DNA of 37,576 bases. Origin: Natronohydrobacter sp. Its GTDB lineage: Bacteria > Pseudomonadota > Alphaproteobacteria > Rhodobacterales > Rhodobacteraceae. The translations under genes were made by a program, and so were the position numbers. Below, in pieces: positions 117-18,625 of this stretch. The stretch lies in the NCBI GenBank assembly GCA_007125005.1, contig SLDY01000109.1:1-37576 (forward strand), in the 5' to 3' direction. Positions within the stretch are counted from its first letter, which is position 1; each line of letters starts with the position of its first letter. Under the pieces are notes generated by a model. That model ran no database searches, was not told the origin of the DNA, and was given only the letters and a program-made list of their open reading frames with translations.

Positions 117-1241
117 TTATAGCGGTTCGATATCGCCCAAGGCGCGCGTCGCGTGAAAGGCTGCGATATGTGCGCCAAGCCGCCCCCCTGCAATCGCGGC
201 GCGCAACCCGGCCATCAGGCTTTGGTAATAAGCCAGATTATGCCATGTCAGCAACATAGACCCGATGATCTCGTCACTCTTGATCACATGATGCAGATAG
301 GCCCTGCTATAGCTGCGGCAGGCGGGGCAATCGCAGCCCTCTTCCAGCGGGCGCGGGTCATCACGGTGGCGCGCATTGCGCAGGTTGACCGCGCCGCGCG
401 CCGTCCAGCCCTGCCCGGTGCGGCCCGAACGCGAGGGCAAAACGCAGTCGAACATATCGACACCGCGCGCCACAGCGCCCACTATATCATCGGGCTTGCC
501 CACACCCATCAAATAGCGTGGCTTGTCCTCGGGGAGTTGTCCGGGCGCATAGTCAAGAACCCCAAACATCGCCGCCTGTCCCTCACCCACAGCAAGCCCG
601 CCGATGGCATAGCCGTCAAAACCGACTGCACGCAGCTTCTCGGCAGAGGCGGCGCGCAGATCAGGTTCCAACCCGCCTTGCTGGATGCCAAAAAGCGCGT
701 GGCCCGGCCGGTCGCCAAATGCATCACGCGAGCGTTGCGCCCAACGCATCGAAAGCTCCATCGATGCCGCAATCGTCGTGCGATCCGCTGGCAAGGCCGG
801 ACATTCGTCAAAACACATCACGATATCAGAGCCCAGAAGCTTCTGGATCTCCATAGACCGCTCGGGTGTCAGCACATGCTTTGACCCGTCGATATGGCTC
901 GAAAACTGCACGCCCTCTTCGGTCAGCTTGCGCAGAGAGGCCAGTGACATCACCTGAAACCCGCCCGAATCCGTCAGAATGGGCCGATCCCAGTTCATGA
1001 ACTTGTGCAGACCCCCAAGCGCGGCGATCCGCTCGGCAGTCGGGCGCAGCATCAGATGATAGGTATTGCCCAGAAGGATATCCGCCCCGGTCGCGCGTAC
1101 AGACTCGGGCAGCATAGCCTTGACGGTCGCCGCTGTGCCAACAGGCATGAAGGCGGGCGTGCAGATCTCTCCGCGCGGGGTCGAGATCCTGCCAGAGCGG
1201 GCACACCCGTCGCGGGCCGATATGTCAAACTGAAATTTCAT
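117..1241 (-). CDS. tgt: Queuine tRNA-ribosyltransferase (tRNA-guanine transglycosylase)
   Basis: This enzyme exchanges guanine 34 in GUN-anticodon tRNAs for the queuosine precursor preQ1. The protein has 374 residues from the chosen ATG ([12 protein letters not shown]), normal for bacterial Tgt. The frame extends six codons further upstream, but that extension is not family-like. Visible landmarks are the active-site [10 protein letters not shown] (Asp91 as general base), the later [16 protein letters not shown] segment carrying the nucleophilic Asp, and the zinc ligands in [16 protein letters not shown]. It follows the Smr gene on the minus strand, after a 148-bp gap that contains a long hairpin and a recurring intergenic motif. 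psd starts 15 bp downstream. I see no damage to the reading frame. Confidence 0.95.
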
Positions 1242-1284
1242 CCGCGCCCAATGCAACAAATGGCACCCAAAGCCAAGCCTGCAA

Positions 1285-1312
1285 GCTTCATCTTGCCCAA
1301 ATACTCAATAGA
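1285..1312 (-). repeat. Recurring intergenic motif, copy A
   Basis: Read on the minus strand this stretch contains TTGAGTATTTGGGCAAGATG followed by AAGC. Near-identical stretches occur at 18599-18625 and 21350-21377. All three share GAG(T/G)AT-(T-rich)-GCAAG-ATGAA. This copy lies between the Smr gene and tgt, just downstream of a long hairpin on the same strand. From memory, sequences like this are common between genes in Rhodobacterales; their role is unknown to me. Confidence 0.6.
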
Positions 1313-1325
1313 ACACCACAGTCGT

Positions 1326-1384
1326 GCCAAAGCGCGCGGGAACGAGCGGGTGGGTGGGTGGGCGACGTTCCCGCGCGCTTTGGC
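1326..1384. repeat. Perfect 19-bp inverted repeat with a G-quadruplex loop
   Basis: The left arm (1326-1344, GCCAAAGCGCGCGGGAACG) is exactly complementary to the right arm (1366-1384). The 21-nt loop contains GGGTGGGTGGGTGGG at 1348-1362 on the plus strand, a four-tract quadruplex motif with single-T loops. On the minus strand the hairpin begins 5 nt after the Smr stop codon, so it may act as its 3' end. Neither side carries an immediate T tract, so it is not a standard intrinsic terminator. Confidence 0.9.
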
Positions 1385-1389
1385 CCGAT

Positions 1390-1995
1390 TCACCGCCCAC
1401 GCCGCAAATAAACATAATACGCCCCAGCCCCGCCATGCCGGATATGTGCCTCACGGATCTCCAGCACCAGCGGGCCAAGCGGCGCCATGCGCAACCATTG
1501 CGGCACATCCTGCTTCAGCGCCCCCGGCCGGCGCGGGATCGGGCCATCATCTGCGAGGTTCTTGCCCTTGCCTGTAATCACCAGCACCAACCGCAAGCCA
1601 TTGGCATGGGCGCGAAGTATGAACCCGTTGAGCGCTCCATGCGCTTGCGCCAGCGTCATACCATGGAGATCAATCCGCGCCTCCGGCGCCAGCTTGCCAC
1701 GGCTCATGCGCTGAAACTGGCGTTTGTCCATCTGCACCGGCACCCGCGCCAAGGCCTCAGATAGCGGATGCGCAAGATCATGGCCGGGCGGCGGGCCATC
1801 AGGGTTTGGGCGCAGCGCGACCCGTCCGGCTATCGTGGCTTTCCGAAGCGGCGCGGAGGGCATGCTTTCCGGTTCGGGTTTTGGGGCGGGGGCAAGAGTG
1901 GGGGCGTGGCTGGATTTCAAAGGCCGCGCGGTTTTCACCACGCGGCCCCAGATTTCCCGGTCCTCGGGCGACAGATCGCGCCGCTTGCGGCTCAT
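1390..1995 (-). CDS. Smr-domain protein (small MutS-related, DNA-binding or nuclease domain)
   Basis: The 201-residue protein has a charged, proline-rich N-terminal half (residues 1-100) and a C-terminal Smr domain (about 105-200). The domain shows the family signatures IDLHGMTLAQAHGAL (residues 108-122) and ITGKGK (140-145), and ends in a conserved HGGAGAYYVYLRR. Smr domains bind, and sometimes nick, DNA or RNA. The job of the stand-alone form in alphaproteobacteria is not settled, so no process is assigned. The ATG overlaps the TGA of the Tim44-like gene in an ATGA, which indicates translational coupling. A long hairpin follows the stop codon. Confidence 0.9.
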   Translation of the reverse strand: MSRKRRDLSPEDREIWGRVVKTARPLKSSHAPTLAPAPKPEPESMPSAPLRKATIAGRVALRPNPDGPPPGHDLAHPLSEALARVPVQMDKRQFQRMSRGKLAPEARIDLHGMTLAQAHGALNGFILRAHANGLRLVLVITGKGKNLADDGPIPRRPGALKQDVPQWLRMAPLGPLVLEIREAHIRHGGAGAYYVYLRRGR

Positions 1996-6537: not shown

Positions 6538-6545
6538 GTGGATAA
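6537..6545 (-). promoter_or_regulatory. Perfect DnaA box at the maf start codon
   Basis: The minus strand reads TTATCCACA, the exact DnaA-box consensus. Its final A is the first base of the maf ATG, so the box fills the space where a ribosome binding site would normally lie. It is the best match among seven good boxes in the neighbouring gap. Confidence 0.85.
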
Positions 6546-6916
6546 ACCTGTGTTAAAGCACGAGAAGAAACAGACCGAAAAACAGGGAAAAACCGGCGCA
6601 TTGCTCTGTGCTGCCATGCCGGGGGTTGTTGCGCAAGCTTCCGCGCCGCTTCATCCACATGTGGGTTTCTTTCAGTGCCAGTTGTGCAAAACTATGAATT
6701 CACAGATTCACAGGAGCGTGATTCATGTTTTGTTCGAAATTAACTAGCTGATTTAAATATATTTTTTTGCACGTTCAGAAACCATTTTCAACATCATGCT
6801 TATGGATAACTCTGTGTATCAATAGCTTATCCCCATATCCACAGGGCTTACATCATCATCATTTCCTTTCTTCTTTCCTTTATTTAAATAAAGGCAGTGA
6901 TGACTAAGAGGTTCGC
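6538..6916. other. oriC: Candidate chromosomal replication origin (oriC), no gene
   Basis: This 379-bp gap between maf and hemJ has no credible gene. It adjoins the perfect DnaA box at 6537-6545 and has six sites one base from TTATNCACA: 6651-6659 (+), 6683-6691 (-), 6801-6809 (-), 6813-6821 (-), 6827-6835 (+) and 6835-6843 (+). Two weaker sites (6696-6704, 6704-6712) form a tandem with 8-bp phase, like the 6827/6835 pair. Bases 6721-6770 are very AT-rich and could be the unwinding element. The position between maf-aroE-coaE-dnaQ and hemJ-rho-mnmE-mnmG-parAB matches the origin location known from Caulobacter and relatives, although hemE and the RP001-type gene are missing here. Confidence 0.78.
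6877..6894. repeat. Perfect 18-bp palindrome upstream of hemJ
   Basis: CCTTTATTTAAATAAAGG is identical on both strands. It ends 22 bp before the hemJ start codon, at the right end of the oriC candidate. It could be an operator for hemJ or a protein site of the origin; the sequence alone does not decide. Confidence 0.85.
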
Positions 6917-7354
6917 ATGCTGGGTGAATTCTATCTCTGGATCAAAGCCGTGCATATCATGGCAGTGATCAGTTGGATGGCAGGTTTGTTCTATCTGCCC
7001 CGGCTATTTGTCTATCATGTCGAACGCGCTGAAGGGGCAGGGATGCTTGCTGTGTTCGAGACGATGGAAGAGAAACTTCTGCGTGTCATCATGAACCCTG
7101 CAATGATTGTGGCTTGGGTGACGGGGTTGATGATGGTTTCTATTCCGGGTGTGATTGCCTGGGATGCGATCTGGCCGTGGAGCAAGTTGGTAGGGCTGAT
7201 CGGGATGACCTGGTTTCATATCTGGTGTGCGCGGCGGCGGCGCATCTTCACTGAAGGCGGCAATAGCCTAAGCGGGCGCAATTACCGGATGATGAATGAA
7301 GTGCCCACAGTGCTGATGGTCGTGATTGTAGTGTCAGTGATCGTGAAATTCTGA
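6917..7354 (+). CDS. hemJ: HemJ-type protoporphyrinogen IX oxidase
   Basis: HemJ oxidises protoporphyrinogen IX to protoporphyrin IX in heme synthesis and, where present, bacteriochlorophyll synthesis. The 145-residue membrane protein fits the family closely. It has four helices, a conserved His in YLWIKAVHIMAVISWMAGLFYLPRLFVYH near residue 13, and the C-terminal NEVPTVLMVVIVVSVIVKF with the invariant E-x-P-T. The ATG is preceded by AAGAGG. It is the first gene rightward of the oriC candidate and precedes rho by 125 bp, as in many alphaproteobacteria. Confidence 0.93.
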   Translation: MLGEFYLWIKAVHIMAVISWMAGLFYLPRLFVYHVERAEGAGMLAVFETMEEKLLRVIMNPAMIVAWVTGLMMVSIPGVIAWDAIWPWSKLVGLIGMTWFHIWCARRRRIFTEGGNSLSGRNYRMMNEVPTVLMVVIVVSVIVKF

Positions 7355-7479
7355 GCCCGGATTGACTTTGATAGCCCAGTAGCGTAGGTGCTCATCAGCG
7401 CCACCGTCCGGTGATGCGCATTTCACTTGATATATCCGCTCGAAAACTCGCCCCAGATGCGGGTAAACAGGATTTTCCC

Positions 7480-18020: not shown

Positions 18021-18602
18021 ATGGCCGAAGCAAAGCCGAACCTGCAACTGGATCCTGAAACCCAGGATATTGAGACCGCAGCGCCAGAATCGGGAATGGA
18101 CGGGCAGGAAGACCCGCTTGCCGCATTCGAGGCGGAAATTGCCGGTCTGATTGCCGAACGCGACGAGATGCGCGACCGGATGATGCGGGCGCTCGCCGAT
18201 GCCGAGAACAGCCGCAAGCGCGCCGAGAAGGATCGCCGCGATGCGCAGCTTTATGGTGGTGCACGGATCGCGCGCGACATGTTGCCTGTCTATGACAATT
18301 TGTCCCGCGCACTTGCAGCGGCCACTGAGGAAACCCGGACGGCTGCAGCCGGTCTGGTCGAGGGTGTGGAGCTGACCTTGCGTGAGTTGACCAATATTCT
18401 GGTCAAGCACGGTGTGGAGCGGATTTCACCTGTCGAGGGCGATATGTTTGACCCGCATCTGCATCAGGCAATGTTCGAGGCTCCGGTTCCGGGCACGCGC
18501 GCGGGGCAGATCATTCAGGTGATGGCCGAAGGATTCATGCTGCATGACCAGCTTCTGCGCCCTGCCCAGGTTGGGGTTTCCTCGACGCCTGCGGGGAATT
18601 GA
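18021..18602 (+). CDS. grpE: Nucleotide-exchange factor GrpE
   Basis: GrpE releases ADP from DnaK. The 193-residue protein has an acidic N-terminus, a long coiled coil (about residues 38-85, including AEIAGLIAERDEMRDRMMRALADAENSRKR), the four-helix region (ARDMLPVYDNLSRAL) and the C-terminal beta domain (FDPHLHQAMFEAPVP, VMAEGFMLHDQLLRPAQVGVS). It lies just after hrcA. The stop codon overlaps copy B of the recurring intergenic motif. Confidence 0.96.
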   Translation: MAEAKPNLQLDPETQDIETAAPESGMDGQEDPLAAFEAEIAGLIAERDEMRDRMMRALADAENSRKRAEKDRRDAQLYGGARIARDMLPVYDNLSRALAAATEETRTAAAGLVEGVELTLRELTNILVKHGVERISPVEGDMFDPHLHQAMFEAPVPGTRAGQIIQVMAEGFMLHDQLLRPAQVGVSSTPAGN

Positions 18603-18625
18603 GTATTTTTGGCAAGATGAAGATC
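18599..18625 (+). repeat. Recurring intergenic motif, copy B
   Basis: GAGTATTTTTGGCAAGATGA (18601-18620), followed by AGAT, fills the whole 21-bp gap between the converging grpE and mutS genes and overlaps the grpE stop. It matches copies at 1285-1312 (minus) and 21350-21377. Unlike those two, no hairpin precedes it. Confidence 0.6.

What the first reader, a model, noticed from the sequence alone, without database searches (positions are those of the whole stretch)
1326..1384. Perfect 19-bp inverted repeat whose loop is a (G3T)3G3 quadruplex motif
Both arms match without a mismatch, and the loop holds four G3 tracts joined by single T residues (1348-1362), the type expected to form the most stable parallel quadruplexes. 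In a cruciform the two loops could form a quadruplex and a C-rich i-motif. No T tract follows on either strand, so it is not an ordinary terminator. It sits just after the Smr gene, whose product is a structure-specific nucleic-acid-binding family.
Basis: seen in the sequence. Interest (0 to 1): 0.68.

Follow-up and report, generated by a model that had tools for sequence, protein, structure and literature searches.

The report
Gene-end hairpin with quadruplex-motif loop
Just after a gene's stop codon lies a strong DNA/RNA hairpin whose loop can form a four-stranded G-structure on one strand; it belongs to an apparently undescribed class of gene-end hairpins in one bacterial family (Rhodobacteraceae), almost always facing the same way relative to both the gene and the direction of chromosome copying.

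Summary
In detail: a perfect 19-bp inverted repeat (1326-1344/1366-1384) encloses (G3T)3G3, far beyond chance. It is not a one-off.

In Rhodobacteraceae, 46 of 52 (G3N)(G3T)2G3-type motifs sit in loops of strong hairpins (random sites 5/986), with arms mostly unrelated between genomes. Elsewhere in Alphaproteobacteria the motif is almost absent (5 hits in about 380 genomes, none in a hairpin). At the smr-tgt gap of relatives the hairpin recurs with compensatory arm changes.

Two orientation rules emerged. (1) The element lies directly after a stop codon with the C-rich loop in that gene's mRNA (39 of 64; G-rich sense 5 of 64). (2) In three genomes with dif located, all 75 elements agree within contig blocks, and beside dif the G-rich strand is the leading-strand template. 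The window's copy obeys both. This is the orientation in which (G3T)n is stable in E. coli (PMC10530614).

Best reading: a 3'-end/intercistronic mRNA hairpin with a C-rich loop, whose opposite strand is quadruplex-prone and tolerated only on the safe side of replication and transcription. There is no U tract and no RAYT transposase. Function and quadruplex formation are inferred, not shown. A link to the Smr protein is not supported.

The parts
1326..1344 (+). left arm of the 19-bp perfect inverted repeat
1345..1365 (+). 21-nt loop (C-rich in smr sense, G-rich on + strand)
1348..1362 (+). (G3T)3G3 quadruplex motif; reads CCCACCCACCCACCC in smr mRNA
1366..1384 (+). right arm of the inverted repeat
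1390..1995 (-). smr gene, upstream of the element; its stop codon ends 5 nt before the hairpin; leading strand by local skew
117..1259 (-). tgt gene downstream of the element, same direction

Best explanation
The element is a gene-end hairpin that acts mainly in the mRNA of the gene just upstream (here smr). A GC-rich stem starting a few nucleotides after the stop codon presents a loop of four C3 tracts. It most likely defines or protects the 3' end, or separates the stability and expression of smr and tgt, by stopping 3'-to-5' exonucleases and/or giving a C-rich landing site to a factor such as Rho or another RNA-binding protein. The same DNA carries a very stable quadruplex motif on the template strand, which is a liability. 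Such elements therefore persist only where the G-rich strand is both the leading-strand replication template and the transcription template. Shown by computation: the hairpin, the compensatory changes, the position after stop codons, the C-rich sense and the replication polarity. Inferred: quadruplex formation in cells, the liability as cause of the polarity, and the RNA function.
For: Hairpin-loop enrichment 46/52 against 5/986 random sites. Compensatory changes at the smr-tgt gap: 12 of 19 pairs, 0/500 shuffles, loop core invariant. Stop codon of a C-sense gene within 50 nt in 39/64, of a G-sense gene in 5/64, random 24/670; stems that begin at or include the stop codon. Polarity: 75 of 75 elements uniform within blocks in three genomes, the one switch brackets dif and the GC-skew switch; sampled genes of G053 are 147 leading and 150 lagging, and short-loop hairpins are unpolarised, 16 and 18; third-position skew corrected for gene direction agrees family-wide. 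The window's smr is leading by local skew. E. coli deletion data for (G3T)8 in both orientations (PMC10530614).
Against: No transcript data. The smr-tgt gap in several relatives lacks the element, and at betB-betA only the 4 genera that the motif search had picked carry it, none of 30 others, so it is dispensable at a given site. In 25 of 64 elements no C-sense gene end was called within 50 nt, partly from missed small genes. Two high-copy genomes break the polarity: G007 none, G068 weak. The family-wide loop was fixed by the search pattern.
Confidence: 0.5

Rival explanations
1. DNA-level device: the quadruplex in the template strand, held by the hairpin stem, is itself the functional part. 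It acts as a polar roadblock that stops RNA polymerase leaving the gene (a terminator without U tract), arranged so that leading-strand genes are insulated.
For: 79 of 88 subfamily copies keep four G3 tracts while the spacers vary among T, C and A; spacers of one or two bases, as in very stable parallel quadruplexes (established knowledge); G-rich strand consistently the template of the adjacent gene; double polarity.
Against: Conserved C3 tracts in an RNA loop would look the same. The orientation is the one in which quadruplexes are least expected to form (PMC10530614). The element also sits between closely spaced co-directional genes such as betB-betA, where a strong roadblock would be harmful.
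Confidence: 0.2
2. Selfish or passively spreading repeat of the REP/MITE kind that inserts next to gene ends, where it does no harm; the hairpin serves its own movement and the polarity reflects insertion during replication.
For: Copy number from 0 to at least 117 within one genus; sporadic presence at orthologous sites; inner stem and loop shared within a genome with different outer arms.
Against: No RAYT/Y1 transposase in the carriers G000, G007 and G009. Arms of most elements are not homologous. Compensatory changes maintained at one site across species. The sense rule after stop codons is not expected from insertion alone.
Confidence: 0.15
3. Ordinary gene-end stem-loop (U-less terminator or mRNA stabiliser) with a G/C-tract loop of no importance.
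For: Gene-end position and strong stem; ordinary short-loop hairpins occur after stop codons in the same genome.
Against: The loop recurs across genera with unrelated arms. Ordinary hairpins show no strand preference, 16 leading and 18 lagging. In bacteria at large terminator spacers vary more than arms (PMC13155455), the reverse of this.
Confidence: 0.1

Closest known systems
Intrinsic terminators, including U-less I-shaped stem-loops (known from mycobacteria; from memory)
   Same: GC-rich stem directly after a stop codon, often between convergent genes
   Different: No U tract; 15-24 nt loop with conserved tracts instead of a short loop; strict replication polarity
REP/BIME and MITE intergenic palindromes
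   Same: Dispersed, intergenic, palindromic, copy number varies between species
   Different: No RAYT partner; loop conserved and arms free, whereas REP units are recognised by conserved stems (from memory)
GGGAATC quadruplex repeats of Xanthomonas (PMC4692102)
   Same: Quadruplex motifs in intergenic regions, on average 28 nt from the next 5' ORF
   Different: Those are tandem heptamers without hairpin arms, with nearly equal use of both orientations
Intrastrand triplex motifs (TMECO) of E. coli (PMC4666352)
   Same: Dispersed intergenic structured repeats with a G-rich part
   Different: Triplex design; no promoter or terminator activity was found for them
Quadruplex upstream of Paracoccus nasT (PMC5123632)
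   Same: Quadruplex motif in the same bacterial family; ligand effect on transcription shown
   Different: Promoter region; sequence GGGAGCGGGACGGGGGCCGGG; no hairpin mentioned in the text
KOPS, chromosome-orienting G-rich octamers read by FtsK (from memory)
   Same: Polar with respect to replication, switching at dif
   Different: Opposite polarity (here C-rich reads toward dif), rare, hairpin-bound, at gene ends

Membership tests
Intrinsic (Rho-independent) terminator | GC-rich stem-loop at a gene end | tested here: met
Intrinsic (Rho-independent) terminator | U tract after the stem | tested here: not met
   window: GGCACGAC in smr sense, GGCCCGAT on the other strand; most family elements lack one
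Intrinsic (Rho-independent) terminator | transcripts end there | not testable with these tools
   no 3'-end data
REP element mobilised by RAYT | Y1 transposase (PF01797) in the genome | tested here: not met
   0 matches in G000, G007 and G009
MITE | terminal repeats with target duplications and a parent transposon | not tested
   -
Known RNA family (Rfam) | match to a covariance model | tested here: not met
   no match at the elements
KOPS-like polar motif | polarity switches at dif | tested here: met
   G053 C2: orientation switch between 241 and 450 kb, dif at 333 kb
KOPS-like polar motif | G-rich strand reads toward dif on the leading strand | tested here: not met
   G-rich strand is minus left of dif in G053, G100 and G245
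G-quadruplex | four runs of at least three G with short spacers | tested here: met
   window 1348-1362; 79 of 88 subfamily copies
G-quadruplex | folds in K+ | not testable with these tools
   needs CD or NMR

The most novel reading that the evidence does not exclude
A natural, lineage-specific class of quadruplex-loop hairpins in which the template-strand quadruplex is itself used as a polar 3'-end signal for leading-strand genes, so that transcription ends are read in the frame of replication direction.
Probability: 0.2. Interest if true: 0.82.

Novelty: new variant of a known kind. Interest (0 to 1): 0.66.

Why it matters
Whether quadruplex motifs matter in bacterial cells is debated. Here an evolutionary record of dozens of sites shows a (G3T)n motif that is retained and yet confined to one strand with respect to both transcription and replication, the same asymmetry measured for (G3T)n on E. 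coli plasmids. That makes a question about quadruplexes in living cells directly testable with ready-made natural constructs. It may also reveal a new kind of mRNA-end signal in a major marine and soda-lake bacterial family.

Tried and rejected
RAYT/REP mobilisation: no Y1 transposase. Rfam families: none at the elements. A tRNA or tmRNA upstream at sites without a called gene: none. A functional link to Smr: the upstream genes are diverse and most smr loci lack the element. Simple flanking GC skew as a measure of polarity is confounded by gene direction, so it was replaced by dif positions and third-position skew per gene. The window looked at first like an exception to the polarity because its overall skew is positive on +; gene by gene the skew switches near 6.5-7.4 kb, between maf and rho, so smr is leading. 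betB-betA looked like a conserved site; in 30 further genera it is not. MAFFT alignment of all smr-locus elements was poor because one entry was given in the wrong orientation, so only six in-register sequences were used for pair counts. Paper searches found no description of this class; subscription papers and preprints are not covered.

Full report
What is there. The window (contig C17 of a Rhodobacteraceae genome of the Roseinatronobacter/Natronohydrobacter/Roseibaca group, judging by the organisms of the nearest smr relatives) has a perfect 19-bp inverted repeat at 1326-1384 around (G3T)3G3. It starts 5 nt after the smr stop codon and lies between smr and tgt, both on the minus strand. Chance is excluded: 30 simulated windows gave no arm of 18 bp or more and no such 15-mer.

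It belongs to a class. The exact motif occurs six times in the same genome and mostly in hairpin loops. In a set drawn from one genome per genus of the family, with extra places from motif-rich genomes, 46 of 52 (G3N)(G3T)2G3 or (G3T)2(G3N)G3 occurrences lie in a strong hairpin loop, against 5 of 986 random positions and 0 of 643 other G-rich sites. The arms are different nearly everywhere. Outside the family, about 380 alphaproteobacterial genomes gave 5 hits and none in a hairpin loop.

A dispersed subfamily. The genome also has a two-hairpin element (GCC...GGC hairpin, then AGCGCCC...G-tract loop...GGGCGCTTTT). It shows strong covariation and copy numbers from 0 to at least 117 in 37 congeneric genomes (counts are lower bounds because candidates are capped). 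It lies mostly between convergent genes. The window element scores only weakly with this model (26.8 bits), so it is a relative in design rather than a copy.

Conservation at the smr-tgt gap. Ten relatives' loci carry a hairpin with the C-rich loop in smr sense; others have none or an unrelated hairpin. In six in-register sequences 12 of 19 pairs show changes on both sides (0 of 500 shuffles reach this), while the 15-nt loop core is identical. Pairing is thus maintained, either by selection or by template-switch correction of the palindrome.

Rule one, the gene. In 64 family elements the stop codon of a gene whose mRNA has the C-rich loop lies within 50 nt of the core in 39 cases, and of a G-rich-sense gene in 5; a random position gives 24 of 670. 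Stems often begin at the stop codon or include its bases. Downstream genes are mostly convergent or follow in the same direction, often within about 110 nt. Upstream genes are diverse.

Rule two, the fork. In G100, G053 and G245 the elements within each contig block all have one orientation (36, 24 and 15 elements). The only switch, on G053 contig C2 between 241 and 450 kb, brackets the dif-like site at 333 kb and the GC-skew switch at 340-380 kb. Left of dif the G-rich strand is the minus strand in all three genomes, that is, the leading-strand template. Gene direction does not explain this: sampled genes of G053 are 147 leading and 150 lagging, and ordinary short-loop gene-end hairpins are 16 and 18. 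Third-position skew per gene gives the same polarity family-wide and for the own genome's subfamily, none for G007 and a weak one for G068. In the window, genes left of about 6.5 kb lead on the minus strand and genes right of about 7.4 kb mostly on the plus strand. The switch lies between maf and rho-mnmE-mnmG with parAB beyond, an origin-type neighbourhood. smr is therefore most likely leading and the element obeys the rule.

Interpretation. Both rules put the G-rich strand where quadruplexes do least harm. In E. coli, (G3T)8 deletes 5- to 174-fold more often when the G-rich strand is the lagging template, and deletions rise in the R-loop orientation, with the G-rich strand displaced (PMC10530614). 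The simplest account is that the useful part is the mRNA hairpin with its C-rich loop after the stop codon, and that the quadruplex on the other strand is the price that limits where it may sit. That the G3 tracts persist in 79 of 88 subfamily copies while spacers vary keeps open that the quadruplex itself is used. A C-rich loop could serve Rho, another RNA-binding protein, or simply 3'-end protection; no data here decide.

Limits. The family-wide loop was fixed by the search pattern. Gene calls are by a simple hexamer score. Contig order is unknown, and dif was located by consensus match. G007 and G068 are unexplained exceptions to rule two. Literature search covered open papers only.

Noticed in passing
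window 1286-1306 (+) and 18601-18618 (-); also L201, L204, L206, L209, L210, L212, L392 and smr gaps of relatives: A second conserved intergenic motif, TTCATCTTGCC-(A)-AAATACTC, recurs in the smr-tgt gaps and elsewhere; in L392 and L376 it forms the loop of another GC-rich gene-end hairpin, so a second conserved-loop hairpin class may exist.
   Followed up: partly
window 6538-7410: Gap between maf (-) and rho (+), followed by mnmE, mnmG, parA and parB, with a switch of coding-strand skew: the chromosomal replication origin probably lies in or near it.
   Followed up: partly
L056, L062, L063 (smr-tgt gap): Some relatives carry a different palindrome, GTAGGGTGCGTGCTNAGCACGCACC(C/T)TAC, at the same place, as if gene-end hairpins of different families replace one another.
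   Followed up: no
G000:C51, C62, C128 contig ends (L003, L004, L016): Several contigs of the assembly break inside copies of the quadruplex hairpin, so copy numbers from short-read assemblies are probably underestimates.
   Followed up: no
G007 (L220-L239) and G068 (L265-L291, L337-L341): Two genomes with the highest copy numbers have lost or weakened the replication polarity of the element.
   Followed up: partly
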